This document shows positions 43,664 to 53,934 of a stretch of 64,000 bases of DNA, in pieces. The position numbers were made by a program, and so were the translations under genes. The notes beneath the pieces were generated by a model. It saw only the letters and a list, made by a program, of their open reading frames with translations, was not told the origin of the DNA and did no database searches. Source of the DNA: Xanthomonas sp. AM6 (lineage in GTDB: Bacteria > Pseudomonadota > Gammaproteobacteria > Xanthomonadales > Xanthomonadaceae); the NCBI RefSeq assembly GCF_025665335.1, contig NZ_CP106869.1:1576501-1640500 (forward strand), given 5' to 3'. Numbering within the stretch: position 1 is the first letter of the stretch; each line of letters starts with the position of its first letter.

Positions 43664-44197
43664 CGATGATTCTTCCTCGGTGAAAGTCCGACAGGGCTGC
43701 AGCTTCGACAGTCGGCGAAACAAACGCGGATCAACACGCCATCGCTTGGGTGGACGCGCAGGCCGCGATCGAACGTGTCAAAGGCACCCCCAGCGCCCAG
43801 CCGCAATCCAGGCGCTCGTCCACGGTGCCGGGCAAGTTCTTCTCGAAGGCAGTGCCTGAATCGGCCCAGTTCGAACGCGGCGTCACTGGTCCGGCCACGA
43901 TCGGGTAGGGGCGGCGAACACGCCGGGCGTCGGCAATGGGGACCGAGGTGGGTAGGAGCTTGCGTGCCGAAGCGGCTTCCTGAGCCGCCTATGCGAAAGG
44001 CACCTAGTGGTCCACCTCCATGGGCTATCCGAAATTCCACCACCGTCCTGCAGCGACCGGCGCGACGACGTTGTGCCCTGCAGCATGGGTTTTCGTGCAC
44101 TGCGTCTTGCAAAAAAACGAATCTCTCCTTTATGGTGCAATCGATTGCATTGCGGCAATCGTCAGCGTTTGATGCCGGTTGGGAGGCCGGAAAGCGG
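43664..44197. other. Gap between ssb terminator and the keto-sugar operon
   Basis: A GTAGGAGC-headed single REP-like half site lies near 43951. An open frame around 43740-43908 has no recognisable family. The LacI-type palindrome at 44136 is the only clear regulatory site. Confidence 0.45.
44136..44149. promoter_or_regulatory. Palindromic operator for the LacI regulator, plus-strand operon
   Basis: TGCAATCGATTGCA is a perfect 14-base palindrome with the central CG typical of LacI/GalR operators. It lies 49 bases before the first gene of the plus-strand operon. The identical sequence is at 52849 before the other operon. Confidence 0.8.
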
Positions 44198-45094
44198 ATG
44201 TCCATCCAATCGATCGGACCGGCGCCGGCCCCGGGATTCACGCGGCGAGATGCGCTGCGCATTGCCGTGGCCGGCAGCCTTGGGTTGGGCGCTGCGGGCG
44301 TGCTGCCTGCGTTTGCCGCTGCCGCGCCGCTCAAAGGCAACATGAAGCATTCCGTCGCCCGCTGGACGTTCCCGCAGCAGTCGATCGCCCAGCTTTGCCA
44401 GACGGTGAAAGGCATCGGTTTCGCCGCCATCGATCTGGTCGGCCCGGCGGATTGGCCGACGCTGAAGGCGAATGGCGTGTACAGCTCGATGTGCAACGGC
44501 GCGGAACTGGGCCTGGACAAGGGCTTCGCCGGCCGCCAGTTCCACGACCAGCTGGTCGAGCGCTACACGCGGCACATCGACCTGGTGGCCGATGCCGGTT
44601 ATCGCAACCTCATCTGTTTTTCCGGCAATCGCAACGGCATGGACCCTCAGGAAGGCATGGCCCACGCCGAGGCGGGGCTCAAGCGCATCCTCGGGCATGC
44701 CGAGAAGCGCGGCGTCGTGCTGGTGATGGAGCTGCTGAACTCCAGGGTCGATCATCCCGACTACCTGTGCGACCACTCCGCATGGGGCGTCGAGCTGTGC
44801 CGGCGGATCGGCTCGGAGCATTTCGGCCTGCTGTACGACATCTACCACATGCAGATCATGGAGGGCGACATCATCGCCACCATCGGCAAGCATCATGCGT
44901 TCTTCAAGCATTACCACACCGCGGGCGTGCCTGGCCGGCACGAGATCGGAGACGATCAGGAACTCCACTATCCCGCCATCTGTCGCGCGATCCGCGATAC
45001 CGGTTTCGACGGCTATCTGGCGCAGGAATTCATGCCTGCGGCGCCGGATCCCGTCGGCTCGCTGCGCGAGGCGATCCGCCTCTGCGACGTCTGA
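44198..45094 (+). CDS. Tat-exported TIM-barrel sugar isomerase/epimerase (hydroxypyruvate isomerase-like)
   Basis: The 298-residue protein has a Tat signal (RR at 16-17, FTRRDALR, then a hydrophobic stretch ending near PAFAA) and a xylose-isomerase-like TIM barrel. Probable metal ligands are in VMELLN, YDIYHMQ, HYHTAG and AQEFMP. It resembles hydroxypyruvate isomerase (Hyi), but export points to a periplasmic sugar substrate. It is the first gene of the operon with the GMC dehydrogenase. An in-frame ATG upstream would place the operator inside the gene and is rejected. Confidence 0.85.
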   Translation: MSIQSIGPAPAPGFTRRDALRIAVAGSLGLGAAGVLPAFAAAAPLKGNMKHSVARWTFPQQSIAQLCQTVKGIGFAAIDLVGPADWPTLKANGVYSSMCNGAELGLDKGFAGRQFHDQLVERYTRHIDLVADAGYRNLICFSGNRNGMDPQEGMAHAEAGLKRILGHAEKRGVVLVMELLNSRVDHPDYLCDHSAWGVELCRRIGSEHFGLLYDIYHMQIMEGDIIATIGKHHAFFKHYHTAGVPGRHEIGDDQELHYPAICRAIRDTGFDGYLAQEFMPAAPDPVGSLREAIRLCDV

Positions 45095-45124
45095 AACGAT
45101 ATCCACCCAGGTGAAGTAGAACCC

Positions 45125-46810
45125 ATGGCAGACAATCACTACGACGCCATCGTCGTCGGCTCGGGAATCAGTGGCGGTTGGGCGGCGAAGGAACTGACCG
45201 AGAAAGGCCTCAAGGTCCTGATGCTGGAACGCGGCCGCAACATCGAACACGTCAAGGACTACGTCAACGCGATGAAGGAGGCGTGGGATTTCCCGCACCA
45301 CAACCGGCCGACCCAGGCGATGAAGGCCGACTACCCGGTGCTGATGCGCGACTACGGCCTGGTCGAGAATCTGCAGGGGATGTGGGCCAACGAAAAGGAA
45401 TCGCCCTACACCGAGATCAAGCGGTTCGACTGGTTCCGCGGCTATCACGTGGGCGGCCGCTCGCTGATGTGGGGACGGCAGAGCTATCGCCTGTCGGACC
45501 TGGATTTCCAGGCGAACCTCAAGGACGGCATCGCCATCGACTGGCCGATCCGTTACGCCGACATCGCGCCCTGGTACGACTACGTGGAGAAGTTCGCCGG
45601 CATCGCCGGCACGCGCGAGGGCCTGGACGTGTTGCCCGACGGCGAGTTCCTGCCGCCGATCCCTTTGAACATCGTCGAGAAGGACGTGGCCGCGCGGATC
45701 AAGAAGGCCTTTGGCGGGACCAGGCACCTGATCCACTCGCGCACCGCGAACATCACCGAGCCCAAGGTCGAGCAGGGCCGCGTCAACTGCCAGTACCGCA
45801 ACAAGTGCATCCTGGGCTGCCCCTACGGCGCCTACTTCTCGACCCAGTCGGCGACGCTGCCGGCGGCCATGAAGACCGGCAACCTGACCTTGCGGCCCTT
45901 CTCGATCGTCAAGGAAGTGCTCTACGACAAGGACCGCAAGCGTGCGCGGGGCGTGGAGATCATCGATGCCGAGAGCGGACAGACCTACCAGTACACGGCC
46001 AACGTCATCTTCCTCAACGCGTCCTCCTTCAATTCGACCTGGCTGCTGATGAACTCGGCCACCGATGTCTGGGAAGGCGGGCTGGGGTCTTCGTCCGGCG
46101 AGCTGGGGCACAACGTGATGGACCATCATTTCGGCGCCGGTGCCGCCGGCCGGGTCGAGGGCTACGACGACAAGTACTACTTCGGCCGTCGTCCCTGCGG
46201 CTTCTACATTCCCCGTTTCCGCAACGTCGCCGCGGACAAGCGCGGCTACCTGCGCGGGTTCGGCTACCAGGGCGGCGCCAGCCGCACCGGGTGGTCGCGC
46301 GAGATCGCCGAGCTGAACATCGGCGCCGACCTGAAGGACGCGCTGACCCTGCCGGGCGAATGGCGCATCGGCATGACTGGATTCGGCGAAATGCTGCCTC
46401 ACCACGACAACACGATTCGCCTGGACCGGCACCGCAAGGACAAATGGGGGCTGCCGGTGCTGGCGATGGACGTGTCCCTGCGCGCGAACGAAAAGGCCAT
46501 GCGCAAGGACATGGCCGCCGATGCCGCCGAGATGCTGGAGGCCGCCGGCGTCAAGGACGTGCAGATGCACGATGACGATTACGCCCCGGGCAAGGGCATC
46601 CACGAGATGGGCACCGCGCGCATGGGCCGTGACCGAAAAAACTCCGTGCTGAACCAGCACAACCAGGTCTGGGACGCGCCGAATGTCTACGTGACCGACG
46701 GCGCCTGCATGACCTCCAGCGCCTGCGTGAATCCCTCGCTGACCTACATGGCGCTGACGGCACGGGCAGCGGACCATGCCGTGCGCGAACTGAAAGCGGG
46801 GAACCTGTGA
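45125..46810 (+). CDS. GMC-type FAD oxidoreductase, catalytic subunit of a membrane sugar dehydrogenase
   Basis: The 561-residue flavoprotein has the FAD-binding GSGISGGWAA (12-21), a C-x5-C-x3-C cluster (Cys222, 228, 232) in the position where FAD-glucose dehydrogenases bind a 3Fe-4S cluster, and active-site His and Asn in HEMGTARM and CVNPSLTYMAL. It lacks its own signal, so it probably travels through Tat with the small subunit encoded next. Family members oxidise glucose or glucosides, at C1 or C3. The context with DUF1080 and isomerases favours C3 oxidation; that is inference. Confidence 0.9.
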   Translation: MADNHYDAIVVGSGISGGWAAKELTEKGLKVLMLERGRNIEHVKDYVNAMKEAWDFPHHNRPTQAMKADYPVLMRDYGLVENLQGMWANEKESPYTEIKRFDWFRGYHVGGRSLMWGRQSYRLSDLDFQANLKDGIAIDWPIRYADIAPWYDYVEKFAGIAGTREGLDVLPDGEFLPPIPLNIVEKDVAARIKKAFGGTRHLIHSRTANITEPKVEQGRVNCQYRNKCILGCPYGAYFSTQSATLPAAMKTGNLTLRPFSIVKEVLYDKDRKRARGVEIIDAESGQTYQYTANVIFLNASSFNSTWLLMNSATDVWEGGLGSSSGELGHNVMDHHFGAGAAGRVEGYDDKYYFGRRPCGFYIPRFRNVAADKRGYLRGFGYQGGASRTGWSREIAELNIGADLKDALTLPGEWRIGMTGFGEMLPHHDNTIRLDRHRKDKWGLPVLAMDVSLRANEKAMRKDMAADAAEMLEAAGVKDVQMHDDDYAPGKGIHEMGTARMGRDRKNSVLNQHNQVWDAPNVYVTDGACMTSSACVNPSLTYMALTARAADHAVRELKAGNL

Positions 46811-47385
46811 TGGATCGCCGCGAACTGCTGAAGATGATCGTCGCCGCCACGGGCGCGGCCATGGTCGGCCTGCCCGCGCTCGTCCACGGACAGGCGCCGG
46901 CCGAGGGCGCGAAGAACGCCTTCTCCGCCGCCGAGGTCGGCACGCTGGACGAGATCGCCGAGACCATCCTGCCGCGAACCAAGACGCCGGGGGCGAAGGA
47001 CGCCGGCGTCGGTGCGTTCATGGCGCGATTCGTCACCGATTGCTACACCGCCGAGCAGCAGGCGGCGTTCCGCGCCGGCCTGGCCGACATCGACAAACGC
47101 GCCGGCGGCCGATTCGTGTCGCTCGCGCCGCAGGCCCGCACCGAGCTGCTGCGCGCCCTGGATGCGGAAGCCAGGAAACACCTCGTCACCGTGACCGACA
47201 CCGGCACTGCCAAAGCGGCGGACGCGATGCCGCATCCCTTCACGATGATCAAGCAGCTGGCCATCTTCAGCTTCTTCACCTCGAAGGTCGCCGCGACCGA
47301 AGTGTTGCAGTACGTCGCCGTGCCGGGTCGCTACGACGGCGACCTCGCCTATGCCCCCGGTACGCCCGCTTGGGCGACCAACTGA
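46810..47385 (+). CDS. Gluconate 2-dehydrogenase subunit 3-like small subunit with Tat signal
   Basis: The 191-residue protein has a Tat signal (MDRRELLKMI, RR at 3-4, cleavage near VHGQA) and a helical body of the gluconate 2-dehydrogenase subunit 3 family (DEIAETILPRTKTPGA, FFTSKVAATEVLQY). It serves as a chaperone that carries the GMC subunit out of the cell and anchors it. Its start overlaps the GMC stop (TGATG), so the two are coupled. Confidence 0.9.
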   Translation: MDRRELLKMIVAATGAAMVGLPALVHGQAPAEGAKNAFSAAEVGTLDEIAETILPRTKTPGAKDAGVGAFMARFVTDCYTAEQQAAFRAGLADIDKRAGGRFVSLAPQARTELLRALDAEARKHLVTVTDTGTAKAADAMPHPFTMIKQLAIFSFFTSKVAATEVLQYVAVPGRYDGDLAYAPGTPAWATN

Positions 47386-47429
47386 TGGACCGCAACGATC
47401 CGCCCATGCGCCACTTCCCCGGAAACACG

Positions 47430-48173
47430 ATGACCAGATCCCTCCTGATGGCGGCCTGCCTGCTGGCCGCGGCGCCTGCGTTCGCGCAGGCCAGCGACGA
47501 CCCCGCGCGCGATCCGAAGAAGACCGAGGTGTGGAAACCCGTGCCCGCGATGGTGGCCACGCCCCCGGGCCGCGCGCCCTCCGACGCGATCGTGCTGTTC
47601 GACGGCAAGGATCTCTCCGCCTGGGAGTCGGAGCAGGGCGGACGCGTGCCCTGGCTCGTCGCCGACGGCGCGCTGACCGTGGTTCCGGGAAGCAAGGGCA
47701 TCCGGACCAAGCAGCGCTTCTGCGACATCCAGCTGCACGTCGAGTGGCGCACGCCCACCGCGACGCGGGGGTTCGAAGGCCAGCAGCGGGGGAACAGCGG
47801 CATCTTCCTGCAGGACCTGTATGAGCTGCAGGTGCTCGACAGCTACAACAACCCGACCTATGCCAACGGCCAGGCCGGCGCGATCTACAAGCAGGCCATT
47901 CCGCTGGTGAACGCCTCGCGTGCGCCGGGCCAGTGGCAGGTCTACGACGTCATCTGGAAGGCGCCCCGCTTTTCGCAGGGCGGCGGGCTCACGTCACCCG
48001 CGCGCATCACCGTCCTGCACAACGGCGTCCTGGTGCAGGACGACACCGTCGTGTCGGGCAAGACCGAGTACATCGGCGCGCCGTCGTACGCGCCACATGC
48101 GTGCGCGCCGATCTCCCTGCAGGAGCACGATTCCAAGGTCAGCTACCGCAACATCTGGGTGCGCGAACTGTAG
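47430..48173 (+). CDS. DUF1080 exported protein, probable 3-keto-glycoside hydrolase
   Basis: The 247-residue protein has a signal peptide (1-20, ending AFAQA) and a concanavalin-like DUF1080 (3-keto-disaccharide hydrolase) domain. Family stretches are IVLFDGKDLSAWE, GNSGIFLQDLYELQVLDS, GAIYKQ and SLQEHDSKVSYRNIWVREL. Known members cleave glycosides oxidised at C3. GGAA upstream supports the start at 47430; an ATG at 47385 overlapping the previous stop is possible. It is the last gene of the plus operon. Confidence 0.88.
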   Translation: MTRSLLMAACLLAAAPAFAQASDDPARDPKKTEVWKPVPAMVATPPGRAPSDAIVLFDGKDLSAWESEQGGRVPWLVADGALTVVPGSKGIRTKQRFCDIQLHVEWRTPTATRGFEGQQRGNSGIFLQDLYELQVLDSYNNPTYANGQAGAIYKQAIPLVNASRAPGQWQVYDVIWKAPRFSQGGGLTSPARITVLHNGVLVQDDTVVSGKTEYIGAPSYAPHACAPISLQEHDSKVSYRNIWVREL

Positions 48174-48200
48174 CGCCGGCGCGCAGCCGGCGCCGGCATC

Positions 48201-48497
48201 CTATTGCGCCAGGAAGCTGGCAAGGTCGTCGACGTCCTGTTGGGACAGCTGGGGAAAGGGCGGCATCAAGCCGCCGCCCTTCCTGATCTTCTCCTTGATC
48301 TGCGCCGACTCCAGCCGCTTGCCCACGTCGATGAGCGCGGGGAACGCGCCCGGGACGCCCGCGCGATTGGCGCCGTGGCAGGCCGTGCAGTTCGTTGCGT
48401 AGAGCCGCGCGCCGGCCGCAGGGTCCTCCTTGGACCATGCCGTGGTCGCAAGCGTCGCCCCCAGCAGAACCGCGGCCACTGTCAGAATCGTTTTCAA
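48201..48497 (-). CDS. Small c-type cytochrome
   Basis: The 98-residue protein has a signal peptide (1-22, ending AWSKE) and one heme motif CTACH with a distal Met in GGLMPPFP. It is the last gene of the minus operon, convergent to the DUF1080 gene, and is the likely electron acceptor of the GMC dehydrogenase in the periplasm. The electron link is inference from context. Confidence 0.9.
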   Translation of the reverse strand: MKTILTVAAVLLGATLATTAWSKEDPAAGARLYATNCTACHGANRAGVPGAFPALIDVGKRLESAQIKEKIRKGGGLMPPFPQLSQQDVDDLASFLAQ

Positions 48498-48515
48498 ATG
48501 TGGCTCCTTCTTGGG

Positions 48516-49382
48516 CTAGCGACGTGCACTGGCGGGCACGTTGGCTGGCAGGTGTTCACGCAGGTAGTCCGCGCCGGTCCGGATGACCGTGGCCGGGTCG
48601 CGCGGACGGTCGTGCTCGATGATGTACCAGCGCACGCCGGCGCCCGCCGCGGCAGGCAGGATCGCGTTCCAGCCCAGGACGCCCTTGCCCACGGCGGCGA
48701 AGCCGCCCTCGTCCTCGGCCTGGCCTTTCGGCGCGTTGTCCTTGGCGTGTACCGCGAACATGCGGCCCTTGAACTTGCCCAGCATCGCCGCCGGGTCGTA
48801 GCCCGCACGCGCGACCCAGGCCAGATCCAGCTCGGTCTCGAGCTCGGGGCCGGCCGCCGCGAACAGCAATTCGAGCCCCGTCTTGCCATTGAAGTCGACC
48901 AGCTCGAAGTCGTGGTTGTGGTAGGCCAGGCGCATGCCCTTGGCCTGCAATCGCTTCGCGATCTGGCCCAGTTCCTTGCCCAAGGCGGTCCAGCCCGCGG
49001 CATCGGCCGGCCGATCCTTCTCGGCCAGGTACGGCACCACCAGTGTCGTGTTGCCGATCGACCGATTGAAGGTCACCACGCCGTCCAGGTCCTTGCGCAG
49101 ATCGGCCAGTTGCACGTGGGACGAGATCGCCTTGATCGCATACCTGTCCAGCAGTTGCTTGAGTTCCGCAGCGCTGACGTTCTGCGTGCCGACCGTTTCC
49201 ACCGCGCCCACGCCGGCGTCGTGGACGATCTTCAACTGCTGGTCCAGCGAGCCGGCGTTGCGCAGCGTGTACATCTGCACTGCGATGGGTTTTTGCGGGC
49301 CGGCGGCGTCGCGTGCGAAGGCGGGCAGGGCGGCGAGGAACAGCAGTGCGAGCGTCGCGGTCCTGCGTGCAGGGGTGTTCAT
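48516..49382 (-). CDS. Exported TIM-barrel sugar phosphate isomerase/epimerase family protein
   Basis: The 288-residue protein has a Sec-type signal peptide (to about PAFARD) and a xylose-isomerase-like barrel. Possible metal ligands lie in YHNHDFELV, ELDLAWVARAG, VHAKDN and IIEHDRP. Export suggests it works on free 3-keto sugars or their enediols in the periplasm. It starts after a GGAGG ribosome site. It lies 19 bases from the Gfo/Idh gene and 18 from the cytochrome gene. Confidence 0.87.
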   Translation of the reverse strand: MNTPARRTATLALLFLAALPAFARDAAGPQKPIAVQMYTLRNAGSLDQQLKIVHDAGVGAVETVGTQNVSAAELKQLLDRYAIKAISSHVQLADLRKDLDGVVTFNRSIGNTTLVVPYLAEKDRPADAAGWTALGKELGQIAKRLQAKGMRLAYHNHDFELVDFNGKTGLELLFAAAGPELETELDLAWVARAGYDPAAMLGKFKGRMFAVHAKDNAPKGQAEDEGGFAAVGKGVLGWNAILPAAAGAGVRWYIIEHDRPRDPATVIRTGADYLREHLPANVPASARR

Positions 49383-49401
49383 CAAGAAGTCCTCCCGGGA
49401 T

Positions 49402-50526
49402 TCAACCGATGGATGTCCAGGCGCGCGTCCTGGCCGATGTGATGACGCGATCGACGATCAGCGCCGAGCGCAATCCGTCTTCGAAGGTGGGCAGGCCTTC
49501 CGGCCGCCCGCCTTCGATGGCGCGATAGGTGTCGGCGACGAACGCCTCGAAGCAATCGCCGTAGCCCTGCGCGTGCCCGGCCGGCAACGTCGCCAGCCGG
49601 CGCTGTTCGGCGCTGCCGGCGCCCGGCCCGCGCACGAAGATTTCCTCGCGCTGGTCGGGCAGGCCGATCCACAGCCGTTCGGCGTCTTCCTGGTCGAACG
49701 CCACGCTGGCCCTGGCGCCATCGATCTCGAACCAGAGGCGGTTGCGGCGTCCCGCCGAGACCTGGCTGACCGTCAACGAAGCCAGCGTGCCCGCGCCGGT
49801 CCTGAACATCGCCGCGGCCACGTCCTCGCTCGATACCGCCTGCATCGCGCCGCCCGCCGCCGGCGTGGTGAAGCTCTGCCCGGTGAGGGTGCCGCGCTCG
49901 GCGATCACGGTCGCGAACGCCGCGCTGACGTCGACGAAACGCTCGCCGCCGACCCATTCCACCAGGTCGCACCAGTGCGAGCCGATGTCGGCGAACACGC
50001 GCGAGGCGCCGCCCAGCGCCGGGTCCACGCGCCAGTTGTTGCTGGCGGGATCCAGCAGCCAGTCCTGCAGGTAGCTGCCGTGGATCAGGCGCAGCGGCCC
50101 CAGTTCGCCCTGCGCGATGCGGGCGCGCGCCTCGCGGACCACCGGGTGGTAGCGGTAGACGAAGGGCACCGTGGCGACCAGTCCGGTCGAGGCGGCCAAT
50201 GCCGCCAATGCCTGGGCGTCTTCCAGCGTCGTGGCCAGCGGCTTTTCGCAGATCACGTGCTTGCCGGCTTCCAGCGCCGCCTGCGCCATGGCGCGGTGCA
50301 GATGGTTGGGCGTGCACACGTGCACGACCTGCACCTGCGGATCGGCGACGACGTCTTCGATGTCGCGATAGGCGCGCGGGACATCCCACGACTGCGCCAC
50401 CTCGCGTGCGCGTTGCGGGGAAGAGGCGACGACGCCGCGGACCGCGGCGCCGGCCAGCAGCGCCGCGCGACGATGCACGGCGCCGATCATGCCCGTGCCG
50501 ACGATGGCGATTCCAAGTTTGCTCAT
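49402..50526 (-). CDS. Gfo/Idh/MocA family oxidoreductase
   Basis: The 374-residue cytosolic protein has an N-terminal Rossmann domain (VGTGMIGAVH), the EKPLA motif with the catalytic Lys, and a C-terminal domain containing FADIGSHWCDLVEW with the His used by Idh-type enzymes. Family members oxidise or reduce sugars at C1 to C5, including 3-keto-glucose reduction. Here it probably reduces the imported 3-keto sugar. It lacks a signal, placing this step in the cytosol. Confidence 0.92.
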   Translation of the reverse strand: MSKLGIAIVGTGMIGAVHRRAALLAGAAVRGVVASSPQRAREVAQSWDVPRAYRDIEDVVADPQVQVVHVCTPNHLHRAMAQAALEAGKHVICEKPLATTLEDAQALAALAASTGLVATVPFVYRYHPVVREARARIAQGELGPLRLIHGSYLQDWLLDPASNNWRVDPALGGASRVFADIGSHWCDLVEWVGGERFVDVSAAFATVIAERGTLTGQSFTTPAAGGAMQAVSSEDVAAAMFRTGAGTLASLTVSQVSAGRRNRLWFEIDGARASVAFDQEDAERLWIGLPDQREEIFVRGPGAGSAEQRRLATLPAGHAQGYGDCFEAFVADTYRAIEGGRPEGLPTFEDGLRSALIVDRVITSARTRAWTSIG

Positions 50527-50536
50527 CGGTGGGTTC

Positions 50537-51754
50537 TCAGCGCGTGGAGGGGGCGGCCGCGACGACCGGCCGGTCGCGGAACAGCAACAGGAAGGCGACC
50601 AGCACGGCCAGCGCCACGCCTGCCGGGAACAGCCAGATCTGCTGCCAGTCCGGGCCCGCCGCCGTGGTGTAGTGCTCCACCACCGCGCCGGACAGGAACG
50701 TGCCGATCAACATGCCCACGCCGTACGTGGCCAGGGTGATGAACCCCTGCGCGCTGCTGCGCGCGGCGGGGCCGGCATGCGCATCGGTGTAGATCTGGCC
50801 GGTGACGAAGAAGAAGTCGTAGCAGATGCCGTGCAGCACGATGCCGATCACCAGCAGGGAGAAGCCGCCGCCCGCATCGCCGAAGGCGAACATGGCGTAG
50901 CGCACCACCCACGCCGCCATGCCCAGCGCCAGCATGGTCTTGACCCCCAGCCGCACGAACAGGAACGGCATGACCAGCATCAGCAGGACTTCGGACACCT
51001 GGCCCAGCGATTGCAGGCCGGCCGCGCCGCGCACGCCCAGATCGTTGAGATACGGGTTGGTGAAGTTGTAGTAGAACGCCAGCGGCACGCAGATGGCGAT
51101 GGACGCCAGGAAGAACACCAGATAGGAGCGCGACTTCAGCAGCCGCAGCGAGTCCAGTCCCAGGATCTGCCCCAGCCCGGCGTCGCGCTGTTGCGCCAGC
51201 GGCGGCGTGTGCGGCAGGGTGAAGGCGTACAGGCCCAGGGCCAGCGACGCGATCGCCGCCATCCGGAACGTCAGCTCGAGCCGGTGCGCCTGTTCCCAGC
51301 CCAGCCAGCCGATCAGCACGCCCGCCACGATCCAGCCGACGCTGCCGGCCACCCGCACCGGCGGAAACTGCTTTTCAGGCGATTGCATGTGCCGCATCGC
51401 CACGCTGTTGGCCAGCGCCAGCGTCGGCATGAACAGCAGCATGTACACCATGACGCAGGCGGAGAACATGCCGAAGCTCGTCGCCGTGGACGCCAGCCAC
51501 ATCAGCACCGCGCCGGCGAGGTGCAGCACCGCGAGGATGCGCTGCGCCGCGAAGTAGCGATCGGCGATCAGGCCGACCAGGAACGGCGCCACGATGGCGC
51601 CGATGGACTGGCTGAGGAAGGCCGTCGCCACCTGGCTCGCGCTGGCCTGCAGGGGACCCTGCACCAGGTACGTCCCCAGGGTCACGAACCACGCCCCCCA
51701 GATGAAGAACTGCAGAAACATCATCGCGCCCAAGCGCGGCATGGTGTGCGTCAT
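50537..51754 (-). CDS. MFS transporter, nucleoside:H+ symporter-like
   Basis: The 405-residue protein has about 12 membrane helices and matches the nucleoside:H+ symporter group (NupG-like, PF03825): MMFLQFFIWGAWFVTLGTYL at the start, GLIADRYFAAQRIL after helix 2. In sugar clusters these proteins import unusual sugars and not nucleosides, so here a 3-keto sugar or glycoside is a likely substrate. That is inference. It lies 10 bases before the Gfo/Idh gene. Confidence 0.85.
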   Translation of the reverse strand: MTHTMPRLGAMMFLQFFIWGAWFVTLGTYLVQGPLQASASQVATAFLSQSIGAIVAPFLVGLIADRYFAAQRILAVLHLAGAVLMWLASTATSFGMFSACVMVYMLLFMPTLALANSVAMRHMQSPEKQFPPVRVAGSVGWIVAGVLIGWLGWEQAHRLELTFRMAAIASLALGLYAFTLPHTPPLAQQRDAGLGQILGLDSLRLLKSRSYLVFFLASIAICVPLAFYYNFTNPYLNDLGVRGAAGLQSLGQVSEVLLMLVMPFLFVRLGVKTMLALGMAAWVVRYAMFAFGDAGGGFSLLVIGIVLHGICYDFFFVTGQIYTDAHAGPAARSSAQGFITLATYGVGMLIGTFLSGAVVEHYTTAAGPDWQQIWLFPAGVALAVLVAFLLLFRDRPVVAAAPSTR

Positions 51755-51781
51755 GGCTTCCCCTCCCAGGGCGGTATCGGC

Positions 51782-52834
51782 TCAGGTCCCCAGCATGCGG
51801 CGCAGCGATTGCGGATCGGCGCCGCTGTCGGCAAAGTCGTCGAAGGCGCGTTCGGTCACGCGGATGATGTGGTCGCGGATGAACGCGGCACCCTCCCGCG
51901 CGCCGTCTTCCGGATGCTTCAGGCAGCACTCCCACTCCAGCACCGCCCAGCCCGGGAAATCGTATTGCGCGAACTTCGAGAAGATCGCCTTGAAGTCGAT
52001 CTGGCCATCGCCGAGCGAGCGGAACCGCCCCGGACGATCGATCCAGTCCTGGTAACCGGCATAGACGCCGCTGCGCGCGCTGGCGCGATACTCCGCGTCC
52101 TTGACGTGGAAGATGCCGATGCGCTGGTGATACCGGTCGATGAAGCCCAGGTAGTCCATCTGCTGCAGCAGCAGGTGGCTGGGGTCGTACAGGATCCTGG
52201 CGCGCGGGTGGTGGTCGACCACCTCCAGGAAGCGCTCGAAGGTCGCGCCGTCGTGCAGGTCCTCGCCCGGGTGGATCTCGAAGCACAGGTCCACGCCGCA
52301 GGCGTCGAAGGCGTCCAGGATGGGGCGCCAGCGGCGGCCGAGTTCGGCGAAGGCCTCGTCCACCAGGCCGGGCGGGCGTTGCGGCCAGGGATAGAAGTAG
52401 GGCCAGGCCAGCGCACCGGAGAACGTGGCGTGCGCGGTCAGTCCCAGGCGCTGGCTGGCCTTGGCGGCCATCTTCAACTGCTCCACCGCCCAGGCCTGGC
52501 GGGCGGCGGGATCGCCGCGCTTGTCCGGCGGTGCGAAGCCGTCGAACAGGCTGTCGTAGGCGGGGTGGACGGCGACCAGCTGCCCCTGCAGGTGGGTGGA
52601 CAGCTCGGTGATCTGCAGGCCGTGCCCGGCCAGCATGCCGGCGACGTCGTCGCAGTACGCCTGGCTCTGCGCGGCCTGGGCCAGATCGAACAGGGGGGGC
52701 GTGCTGGTCGGTACTTGTACGCCAGAATAACCCAGGCCCGCGGCCCACCCGGCCAGCGTGTCCAAGCGATCGAAGGGAGGTTTGTCGCCGATGAACTGCG
52801 CCAGGAACAGCGCTGGACCCTTGAGCGTCTTCAA
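51782..52834 (-). CDS. Cytosolic TIM-barrel sugar isomerase/epimerase
   Basis: The 350-residue protein is a xylose-isomerase-like barrel without signal peptide. Metal-binding candidates are in CFEIHPGEDLH, YDPSHLLLQQ, FHVKDAEYR and VLEWECC. It is the first gene of the minus operon. A TTG start at 52834 (KTLKGPALFLAQFIGD) is preferred because a longer frame to 52888 would include the operator palindrome at 52849. It may act on the imported keto sugar with the Gfo/Idh enzyme. Confidence 0.87.
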   Translation of the reverse strand: MKTLKGPALFLAQFIGDKPPFDRLDTLAGWAAGLGYSGVQVPTSTPPLFDLAQAAQSQAYCDDVAGMLAGHGLQITELSTHLQGQLVAVHPAYDSLFDGFAPPDKRGDPAARQAWAVEQLKMAAKASQRLGLTAHATFSGALAWPYFYPWPQRPPGLVDEAFAELGRRWRPILDAFDACGVDLCFEIHPGEDLHDGATFERFLEVVDHHPRARILYDPSHLLLQQMDYLGFIDRYHQRIGIFHVKDAEYRASARSGVYAGYQDWIDRPGRFRSLGDGQIDFKAIFSKFAQYDFPGWAVLEWECCLKHPEDGAREGAAFIRDHIIRVTERAFDDFADSGADPQSLRRMLGT

Positions 52835-52848
52835 CGTGATTCGCCTGA

Positions 52849-52862
52849 TGCAATCGATTGCA
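52849..52862. promoter_or_regulatory. Palindromic operator for the LacI regulator, minus-strand operon
   Basis: TGCAATCGATTGCA, identical to the site at 44136, lies 14 bases before the TTG start of the isomerase gene and 67 bases before lacI-type gene's ATG. It could control both this operon and the regulator gene. Confidence 0.8.
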
Positions 52863-52929
52863 TTTATCCTAGCATGGGCCTCCCGCAAGACCCGTTGTGC
52901 ACTGCACAGCAGAAAGAAGAACTAACGCC

Positions 52930-53934
52930 ATGGCAACCATTTACGACATCGCAAGGCAGGTCGGCGTCTCCGCCGGCACGGTGTCGCGTGCGCTTTCCCG
53001 GCCGGAAAAAGTCCTGCCGGCCACGCGCACGCGCATCGAGCAGGCCGCCGCCGCGCTGGGCTATGTCCCCAACACGGTCGCCAGGACGCTCAAGACCCAG
53101 CGCAGCGGCAAGATCCTGGTCACCGTCCCGGACATCGCCAATCCGTTCTTCGCCCAGATCCTGCAGGGCGCGGAGGAAGCGGCGCAGGCGGTCGGCTACG
53201 CCGTCCTGCTGGGCGATACCCAGCACCAGCCCGACCGCGAGGAGCGCTACGCGCAGATGCTCCGGCGCAACGAGGCCGACGGCCTGATCGTGCTGGGGCA
53301 CCGCCTGCCGCCGACGGCGCGCGCGATCGTCAAGCAACTGGGCGCCGCCGCGCCGGTGGTCAACGGATGCGAGTTCGACCCGGCGCTGGGCATCCCCAGC
53401 GTCCACATCGACAACGCGGCCGCCGCGCGCGCCGTGATGGAACATCTGTATGGACTGGGCCACGAGCGGATCGCCGTGGTGGGCGGCCCGCCCGACAACC
53501 CCCTGCACCGGCAGCGACTGGAAGGGGCCCGCGCCGCCGGCAAGGCGCGCGGCCGCCTGCGCAACCTGACCGTCGTGCCGGGCGACTTCTCCGTGGAATC
53601 CGGCCATGCGGCCGCGATGGCGCTGTTGGCCCGCGCGCCCGTGCCGACCGCGATCTTCTGCTTCAGCGACCAGATGGCGCTGGGCGCCCTGGCGGCCTGC
53701 CGGGACCTGGGCATCCGCGTGCCGGATGAGCTGTCCATCGTCGGCTTCGACGACCTGGCGTCGTCCCGTTACCTCACGCCCCCGTTGACGACCATCCGGC
53801 AACCCATGCGGGAGATCGGTGTCCGCGCGGTCAACCTGCTGCTCGCCATCATCGAAAGCGCGGATGTGCCGCTTCAGCAGACGCTGGATTTCCGCTTGAT
53901 GTTGCGCGGGTCGACGGGCGCGCCGAAGCGGTAG
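52930..53934 (+). CDS. LacI family transcriptional regulator of the keto-sugar regulon
   Basis: The 334-residue protein has an N-terminal LacI helix-turn-helix (ATIYDIARQVGVSAGTVSRAL) with the hinge NTVARTLKT, and a periplasmic-binding-like sugar domain (VPDIANPFFAQIL, SIVGFDDLASSRYLTPPLTT). It is divergent from the minus operon and the shared palindrome is within 70 bases of its start, so it is very likely the repressor of both operons. The inducer is probably a sugar of the pathway. ATG at 52930 is preferred over GTG at 52897. Confidence 0.93.
   Translation: MATIYDIARQVGVSAGTVSRALSRPEKVLPATRTRIEQAAAALGYVPNTVARTLKTQRSGKILVTVPDIANPFFAQILQGAEEAAQAVGYAVLLGDTQHQPDREERYAQMLRRNEADGLIVLGHRLPPTARAIVKQLGAAAPVVNGCEFDPALGIPSVHIDNAAAARAVMEHLYGLGHERIAVVGGPPDNPLHRQRLEGARAAGKARGRLRNLTVVPGDFSVESGHAAAMALLARAPVPTAIFCFSDQMALGALAACRDLGIRVPDELSIVGFDDLASSRYLTPPLTTIRQPMREIGVRAVNLLLAIIESADVPLQQTLDFRLMLRGSTGAPKR

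What the first reader, a model, noticed from the sequence alone, without database searches (positions are those of the whole stretch)
44136..53934. Complete candidate 3-keto-glycoside catabolic regulon
Two divergent operons and one LacI gene contain a GMC dehydrogenase, its Tat small subunit, a cytochrome c, a DUF1080 keto-glycoside hydrolase, three TIM-barrel isomerases, a sugar-type MFS importer and a Gfo/Idh oxidoreductase. Signals place oxidation, hydrolysis and two isomerases in the periplasm and the last isomerase and oxidoreductase in the cytosol. This orders a pathway: oxidise glycoside at C3, cleave, isomerise, import, reduce. Each part is known separately; this full arrangement in a Xanthomonas-like genome may be undescribed.
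Basis: partly seen in the sequence, partly recalled or inferred. Interest (0 to 1): 0.85.

Follow-up and report, generated by a model that had tools for sequence, protein, structure and literature searches.

The report
Oxidise-eliminate-hydrate-reduce glycoside gene cluster

Summary
All ten genes are present and intact, but the two enzyme operons converge rather than diverge, and two of the three 'isomerases' are misread. The exported TIM barrel at 48516-49382 is 58.8% identical to the A. tumefaciens O-glycoside beta-eliminase (PDB 8BVK), with its metal and catalytic residues kept. The cytosolic one at 51782-52834 is 73.0% identical to PDB 8RO4, named 2-hydroxy-3-keto-glucal hydratase. The DUF1080 protein has the fold of solved 3-keto-glycoside eliminase/hydratases. 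Likely order: C3 oxidation and beta-elimination in the periplasm, import, hydration, reduction to glucose. The regulon is well supported: TGCAATCGATTGCA (up to 1 mismatch) occurs only twice in the 4.92-Mb genome, once before each operon, and the pair is kept in relatives. Hydratase, eliminase and the third TIM barrel occur in the same 13 of 99 family genomes. The chemistry and a similar gene set are published (PMC10628242, PMC9007349), so this is a new member of a known kind. The least explored point is what crosses the membrane: in 48 of 49 loci the eliminase looks exported and an importer (MFS or ABC) lies nearby; in the one where it does not, neither importer was found. No activity was tested.

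The parts
44136..44149 (.). LacI-type operator TGCAATCGATTGCA before the first operon
   Evidence: one of only two places with up to 1 mismatch in the genome; a site with up to 2 mismatches lies before TIM1 in 21 of 22 Xanthomonadaceae loci, the other contig (L014) ends first
44198..45094 (+). TIM1: Tat-type exported xylose-isomerase-like TIM barrel, probably a keto-sugar isomerase or epimerase
45125..46810 (+). GMC flavoprotein, probable glycoside 3-dehydrogenase catalytic subunit
   Evidence: PF05199 and PF00732; 75-76% identical to the GMC gene beside OGE in 7 Agrobacterium-group loci; single copy at E 0.001 in own genome
46810..47385 (+). Tat-type small subunit of the dehydrogenase (gluconate 2-dehydrogenase subunit 3 family)
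   Evidence: PF13618, E 1.5e-32; twin-arginine N-terminus read by eye
47430..48173 (+). Exported DUF1080 (3keto-disac_hyd) protein, probable 3-keto-glycoside eliminase/hydratase
   Evidence: PF06439, E 7.4e-44; only PF06439 match in the genome; PDB 4qhz E 1e-74; profile links to 8tda and 8rr2 at E 4-5e-5; fold of 8rr2, 9fbe, 8v31, 8tda
48201..48497 (-). Exported single-haem cytochrome c, likely electron acceptor (TTG start)
   Evidence: PF13442, E 5.1e-16; matched in 19 of 22 Xanthomonadaceae loci, not in L015, L020, L021
48516..49382 (-). OGE: exported TIM barrel, probable O-glycoside beta-eliminase
   Evidence: PDB 8bvk E 1.1e-95; 58.8% identity over 250 positions; E39, H66, H132, H134, E161, D163, H189, E233 of AtOGE all kept
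49402..50526 (-). Cytosolic Gfo/Idh/MocA oxidoreductase, probable 3-keto-glucose reductase
   Evidence: PF01408, E 7.1e-33; best NCBIfam model is levoglucosan dehydrogenase but far below cut-off; best PDB 6a3f
50537..51754 (-). MFS (Nuc_H_symport) importer, inferred to carry the elimination product
   Evidence: PF03825, E 2.1e-115; of 49 loci with HYD at 55% identity or more, 33 have this MFS gene, 15 an Rbs-type ABC transporter instead, 1 neither, none both
51782..52834 (-). HYD: cytosolic TIM barrel, probable 2-hydroxy-3-keto-glucal hydratase (TTG start)
   Evidence: PDB 8ro4 E 9.7e-181, residues 1-349 aligned; 73.0% identity over 348 positions
52849..52862 (.). LacI-type operator TGCAATCGATTGCA between hyd and lacI
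   Evidence: a site with up to 2 mismatches just before hyd in 22 of 22 Xanthomonadaceae loci
52930..53934 (+). LacI-family regulator
   Evidence: PF00356 and PF13377; CytR is the best NCBIfam model but below its cut-off, 317.8 against 436 bits

Best explanation
A LacI-controlled, non-hydrolytic glycoside-degradation module. In the periplasm a GMC dehydrogenase with a Tat small subunit oxidises C3 of a glucoside and passes electrons to a c-type cytochrome. An exported OGE-type TIM barrel splits off the aglycone by metal-assisted beta-elimination, giving 2-hydroxy-3-keto-glucal. The exported DUF1080 protein is a second eliminase/hydratase, perhaps for alpha-linked substrates. The product is imported by the MFS protein, hydrated by HYD to 3-keto-glucose and reduced by the Gfo/Idh protein to glucose. 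The Tat-exported TIM1 probably epimerises or isomerises 3-keto sugars. Shown here: gene content, homology, kept active-site residues, operator pair, co-inheritance. Inferred: every reaction, electron transfer, the transported compound, the alpha/beta split and the role of TIM1.
For: OGE and HYD match solved, named enzymes, with OGE active-site residues kept. An A. tumefaciens operon with the same four steps is published. DUF1080 has the fold of solved eliminase/hydratases. OGE is fused in frame to a DUF1080 domain in 3 of 81 loci. The operator pair is unique in the genome and kept in relatives. HYD, TIM1 and OGE occur in the same 13 of 99 family genomes. Importer beside HYD is MFS or ABC, never both.
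Against: No activity was measured. The Gfo/Idh protein is only 27-35% identical (best tblastn segments) to the Gfo proteins of the non-Xanthomonadaceae loci that hold HYD at 55% or more, 28-31% in Agrobacterium, so it may be a different reductase. AtOGE Asn52, named in the published simulation as activating His134, is Lys here. The window DUF1080 is only about 20% identical to the characterised eliminase/hydratases and its model is mediocre (pLDDT 70.8). The published evidence for the hydratase step is called preliminary. Localisation rests on N-termini judged by eye and hydrophobicity. No promoter-like site was found.
Confidence: 0.85

Rival explanations
1. One reading: DUF1080 hydrolyses the 3-keto-glycoside and the three TIM barrels isomerise the released 3-keto sugar before import and reduction.
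For: Pfam names DUF1080 '3-keto-disaccharide hydrolase' and PMC9007349 proposes a 3'-ketolactose hydrolase. TIM1 does look like an isomerase or epimerase.
Against: Two of the three TIM barrels match a beta-eliminase and a hydratase far better than any isomerase, with the eliminase residues kept. Solved DUF1080 relatives are titled eliminase/hydratase. Two Pseudomonas genomes with OGE, HYD and the MFS gene have no PF06439 match; seven Agrobacterium-group genomes have only distant ones, 29.8-34.3 bits, though above Pfam's cut-off of 26.8.
Confidence: 0.08
2. The four-step chemistry holds, but the natural substrate is lactose or another galactoside, as for lacABC of Caulobacter, with TIM1 as a 3-keto-sugar 4-epimerase. 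This rival concerns the substrate, so it is not exclusive of the best explanation.
Against: Z for 6wn6 is not above that of other isomerases (3ngf 24.5, 1k77 23.5). The A. tumefaciens eliminase, from a cluster without TIM1, was shown on the 3-keto form of the beta-glucoside phlorizin. Caulobacter sequences were not compared here.
Confidence: 0.2
3. Levoglucosan or another anhydrosugar is the substrate, as in Bacillus smithii lgdA/B1/B2/C.
For: The Gfo/Idh protein is nearest the levoglucosan dehydrogenase family and that pathway has the same four steps.
Against: Gfo scores 192.6 against a 650-bit cut-off for levoglucosan dehydrogenase. The four published lgd genes include no GMC dehydrogenase with a Tat subunit.
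Confidence: 0.05

Closest known systems
Agrobacterium tumefaciens GlycDH-AtOGE-AtHYD-Gfo operon (Nat Commun 2023, PMC10628242; first author Kastner is recalled)
   Same: Dehydrogenase, eliminase, hydratase and Gfo reductase together in the paper. In 7 Agrobacterium-group loci LacI, HYD, Gfo, OGE, GMC and the small subunit lie in one run. Window OGE is 58.8% identical to 8BVK, HYD 73.0% to 8RO4, GMC 75-76% to those loci
   Different: Those loci show no TIM1, DUF1080 or cytochrome match in the cluster and have an Rbs-type ABC transporter, not MFS; Gfo only 28-31% identical
Caulobacter crescentus lacABC / CCNA_01705 cluster and Halomonas titanicae BH1 cluster (PLoS Genet 2022, PMC9007349; first author Price is recalled)
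   Same: Dehydrogenase, DUF1080, transporter, two epimerase-type proteins and reductase together. The BH1 locus L028 has OGE-TIM1-GMC-small subunit-DUF1080 and MFS-HYD-Gfo-LacI
   Different: Other gene order, Gfo only 30% identical and no cytochrome match in L028; Caulobacter sequences not compared here
Bacillus smithii levoglucosan pathway lgdA-B1-B2-C (Kuritani 2020, PMC7676230)
   Same: Oxidation, beta-elimination, hydration, reduction (abstract and discussion read)
   Different: Acts on an anhydrosugar with a levoglucosan dehydrogenase as first step, in a Bacillus; no GMC dehydrogenase among its four genes
Bacteroides/Alistipes DUF1080 3-keto-glycoside eliminase/hydratases (PDB 8rr2, 9fbe, 8tda, 8v31)
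   Same: DUF1080 fold
   Different: About 20% identity; known here from PDB titles only, the paper I tried for was not held

Membership tests
OGE-type O-glycoside beta-eliminase | Homology to AtOGE over the whole barrel | tested here: met
   residues 31-280 aligned, E 1.1e-95, 58.8% identity
OGE-type O-glycoside beta-eliminase | Metal ligands His132, Asp163, His189, Glu233 and catalytic His134 | tested here: met
   all kept in the window and in 22 of 22 Xanthomonadaceae loci. Asn52 is Lys in the window and in those 22; among 24 other homologues it takes 8 different residues (Asn in 9), so I do not take it as defining
OGE-type O-glycoside beta-eliminase | Releases aglycone and 2-hydroxy-3-keto-glucal from a 3-keto-beta-glucoside | not testable with these tools
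   needs an enzyme assay
2-hydroxy-3-keto-glucal hydratase (8ro4) | Full-length homology | tested here: met
   residues 1-349 of 350 aligned, 73.0% identity
2-hydroxy-3-keto-glucal hydratase (8ro4) | Hydratase activity | not testable with these tools
   needs an enzyme assay
Four-step oxidise-eliminate-hydrate-reduce operon | Dehydrogenase, eliminase, hydratase and reductase genes together | tested here: met
   by homology
Four-step oxidise-eliminate-hydrate-reduce operon | Reductase orthologous to the A. tumefaciens Gfo | tested here: inconclusive
   same superfamily, 28-31% identity to the Gfo of Agrobacterium-group loci
lacABC/DUF1080 cluster of Caulobacter | GMC dehydrogenase, partner subunits, DUF1080, transporter, epimerase-type proteins and reductase together | tested here: met
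   gene kinds agree with the paper's text
lacABC/DUF1080 cluster of Caulobacter | Sequence orthology to the Caulobacter genes and lactose use | not tested
   no Caulobacter locus was fetched
DUF1080 3-keto-glycoside eliminase/hydratase | PF06439 domain and fold | tested here: met
DUF1080 3-keto-glycoside eliminase/hydratase | Catalytic residues of the characterised members | not tested
   no source paper was available
Ketose 3-epimerase / hydroxypyruvate isomerase (for TIM1) | TIM-barrel fold and a Glu-Asp-His-Glu metal quartet | tested here: inconclusive
Hydroxypyruvate isomerase equivalog (for TIM1) | TIGR03234 cut-off of 353.45 bits | tested here: not met
   87 bits
Levoglucosan dehydrogenase (for Gfo) | NF052479 cut-off of 650 bits | tested here: not met
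   192.6 bits
Nucleoside permease (for MFS) | TIGR00889 cut-off of 446.1 bits | tested here: not met
   370.1 bits
LacI regulon | Same palindromic operator before each operon | tested here: met
LacI regulon | Regulator binds it and is released by an inducer | not testable with these tools
   needs a binding assay

The most novel reading that the evidence does not exclude
The pathway is cut in two by the inner membrane so that the reactive enone 2-hydroxy-3-keto-glucal, not a sugar or glycoside, is the imported nutrient. Of 49 loci with HYD, OGE has an export-type N-terminus in 48, and the same 48 carry an importer of one of two unrelated kinds (Nuc_H_symport MFS in 33, Rbs-type ABC in 15); the one locus whose OGE starts without a signal (L052) is the one where neither importer was found. 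HYD shows no export signal. The DUF1080 protein, fused to OGE in some relatives, would add a second periplasmic cleavage route for the other anomer. This would give two transporter families a new substrate.
Probability: 0.4. Interest if true: 0.55.

Novelty: new member of a known kind. Interest (0 to 1): 0.35.

Why it matters
Xanthomonas and relatives carry a complete, single-regulator version of a non-hydrolytic glycoside pathway whose genes, in the one annotated Xanthomonas record I looked at, bear generic names such as 'sugar phosphate isomerase/epimerase', 'nucleoside permease' and 'TIM barrel protein'. If the membrane split is right, it names importers for an unusual enone sugar and suggests how such bacteria could use glycosides with many aglycones without a specific glycosidase for each.

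Tried and rejected

'OGE exported in every lineage' was my first wording; on recounting it is 48 of 49 by a crude rule (best mean hydropathy of 10 residues 1.84 or more before the barrel). In L071, L074 and L079 the OGE-like protein is only 34-35% identical to the window OGE and its N-terminus is twin-arginine type. HYD N-termini could be seen in 47 of 49 (L027 and L031 are cut at the locus end); L003, L004, L010 and a few others have upstream in-frame starts that would add a somewhat hydrophobic stretch (up to 2.08 in L004), which I reject because the aligned start lies downstream. In L052 no transporter family was found among 16 frames scanned, but a family-3 glycoside hydrolase follows HYD; other frames were not scanned.

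'No DUF1080 in Agrobacterium' was also too strong: each of the 7 genomes has a distant PF06439 match above the curated cut-off elsewhere, 29.8-34.3 bits. The completeness of those 9 genomes was not told. Of the two Pseudomonas genomes, the locus of one (L054) ends inside OGE, and neither L047 nor L054 shows a GMC match within the locus, so the oxidising enzyme there is unknown.

Genomic context: ssb lies beyond TIM1 in 9 of 22 Xanthomonadaceae loci, and the S9 peptidase beyond lacI in 2 of 22 and in L088. One cluster-less genome (G011) has ssb and the S9 gene about 6.2 kb apart with another large frame between; loss or gain was not worked out. Cluster proteins searched against 3.5-kb pieces around ssb in six cluster-less genomes gave only ssb, but those pieces are short.

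Papers: full-text searches; the listings were capped (one search showed 20 of 3,451), and none of the titles listed was about this cluster in Xanthomonas; the library lacks most subscription journals. Arellano 2010 and the recalled Nature 2024 gut-pathway paper were not held. The paper behind 8RO4 was not seen.
Full report
Observation. The ten genes are present and intact. On the + strand from 44198 to 48173 run TIM1, the GMC protein, its small subunit and the DUF1080 protein. On the - strand from 52834 down to 48201 run HYD, an MFS protein, a Gfo/Idh protein, OGE and a small cytochrome c. lacI lies at 52930-53934 on the + strand. The two enzyme operons therefore converge near 48.2 kb; the word 'divergent' fits only lacI against the second operon. 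Pfam supports each domain name.

Two 'isomerases' are not isomerases by homology. The exported TIM barrel (48516-49382) matches PDB 8bvk at E 1.1e-95, which PMC10628242 identifies as the O-glycoside beta-eliminase AtOGE (passages read). Residues Glu39, His66, His132, His134, Glu161, Asp163, His189 and Glu233 are all kept in the window and in 22 of 22 Xanthomonadaceae loci. Asn52, named in the published simulation, is Lys in the window and those 22 loci and variable among 24 other homologues. Identity is 58.8% over 250 positions. The cytosolic TIM barrel (51782-52834) matches PDB 8ro4, named 2-hydroxy-3-keto-glucal hydratase, over residues 1-349 of 350 at E 9.7e-181, 73.0% identical. In the paper AtOGE cleaves 3-keto-phlorizin, and the hydratase and Gfo steps rest on what the authors call preliminary evidence (sections 7 and 14 read).

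DUF1080. It is the only PF06439 match in the genome. Its nearest solved relative is 4qhz, titled putative glycosyl hydrolase. A profile reaches 8tda and 8rr2 at E 4-5e-5. By fold it joins 8rr2 and 9fbe, titled 3-keto-glycoside eliminase/hydratase, and 8v31 and 8tda, titled 3-keto-2-hydroxy-glucal hydratase, at about 20% identity (model pLDDT 70.8). In two Luteimonas loci and one Truepera MAG, of 81 loci examined (L001 being the window's own), OGE is fused in frame to a DUF1080 domain, which supports a shared task.

Regulon. TGCAATCGATTGCA occurs at 44136 and 52849. With up to one mismatch it occurs nowhere else in the 4.92-Mb genome, and the control pattern occurs zero times. In 22 Xanthomonadaceae loci a site with up to 2 mismatches lies just before hyd in 22 of 22 and before TIM1 in 21 of 22; the remaining contig (L014) ends before TIM1. 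In the other loci of that script the sites near these genes have 3 mismatches or are absent, except one with 1 mismatch before OGE in L049.

Distribution. Of the 22 Xanthomonadaceae loci, 18 hold all ten genes, L014 lacks TIM1 at a contig end, and L015, L020 and L021 show no cytochrome match. In a draw of 99 family genomes, the window's own included, HYD, TIM1 and OGE at E 1e-50 occur in the same 13 genomes, from 8 of 54 genera; in two of these the OGE match counts one TAG inside, not examined further. Within the genus HYD is in 14 of 20 genomes, own included. HYD relatives lie on 310 of 72,556 plasmid records, and a 508-kb X. sacchari record annotated as a plasmid carries the whole cluster. 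The module is patchy and behaves as a block.

Transport and compartments. Of 49 loci with HYD at 55% identity or more, 33 have the MFS gene, 15 have an Rbs-type ABC transporter, none has both and one (L052) has neither (ABC parts identified). By hydropathy OGE has an export-type N-terminus in 48 of the 49; the exception is again L052, where it starts directly at the barrel. HYD, seen at its N-terminus in 47 of 49, shows no signal at its aligned start. No transporter family was found among 16 frames scanned in L052. Two Pseudomonas genomes with OGE, HYD and MFS have no PF06439 match at all; seven Agrobacterium-group genomes have distant ones of 29.8-34.3 bits, above the curated cut-off. Where no DUF1080 enzyme acts in the periplasm, the product of exported OGE must cross the membrane to reach HYD unless it hydrates on its own. 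From this I infer that 2-hydroxy-3-keto-glucal is the imported compound. This is inference only. The word periplasm has 0 occurrences in the main text of PMC10628242; later papers were not seen.

Known context. [quoted passage not shown] locus L028 is that strain and has all the window's gene kinds but the cytochrome. The levoglucosan pathway of B. smithii uses the same four reactions (abstract and discussion read). The finding is therefore a new member of a known kind. Its value lies in correcting the enzyme roles, in the single-LacI operator pair, and in the transport question.

Limits. No activity was tested, no signal-peptide program was run, the Gfo orthology is uncertain, Caulobacter sequences were not compared, and two papers sought were not held.

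Noticed in passing
L020:9908-11383 and L021 (Luteimonas), L046 (Truepera MAG): OGE is fused in frame to a DUF1080 domain; in L020 a second GMC gene follows directly.
   Followed up: partly
L029, L034, L035, L038-L042 and L022, L024, L025, L031, L033, L037, L049: An Rbs-type ABC transporter stands where the MFS gene would be beside HYD.
   Followed up: yes
L052:10019-14319 (Rhodoferax MAG): OGE without an export signal, HYD and a family-3 glycoside hydrolase in a row, with neither importer found.
   Followed up: partly
L088 (NZ_CP010410.1 208730-227779): The whole cluster lies on a 508-kb X. sacchari record annotated as a plasmid, with the same neighbours (ssb, S9 peptidase, oligopeptide symporter) as in the window, so the plasmid label may deserve a check.
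   Followed up: no
window 44001-48000: GC is 65.8%, the lowest of the sixteen 4-kb bins; the others run from 66.4% to 74.0%.
   Followed up: no
G088 and G114 (same family): A second HYD-like gene, 63-64% identical to the window HYD, lies elsewhere in these genomes.
   Followed up: no
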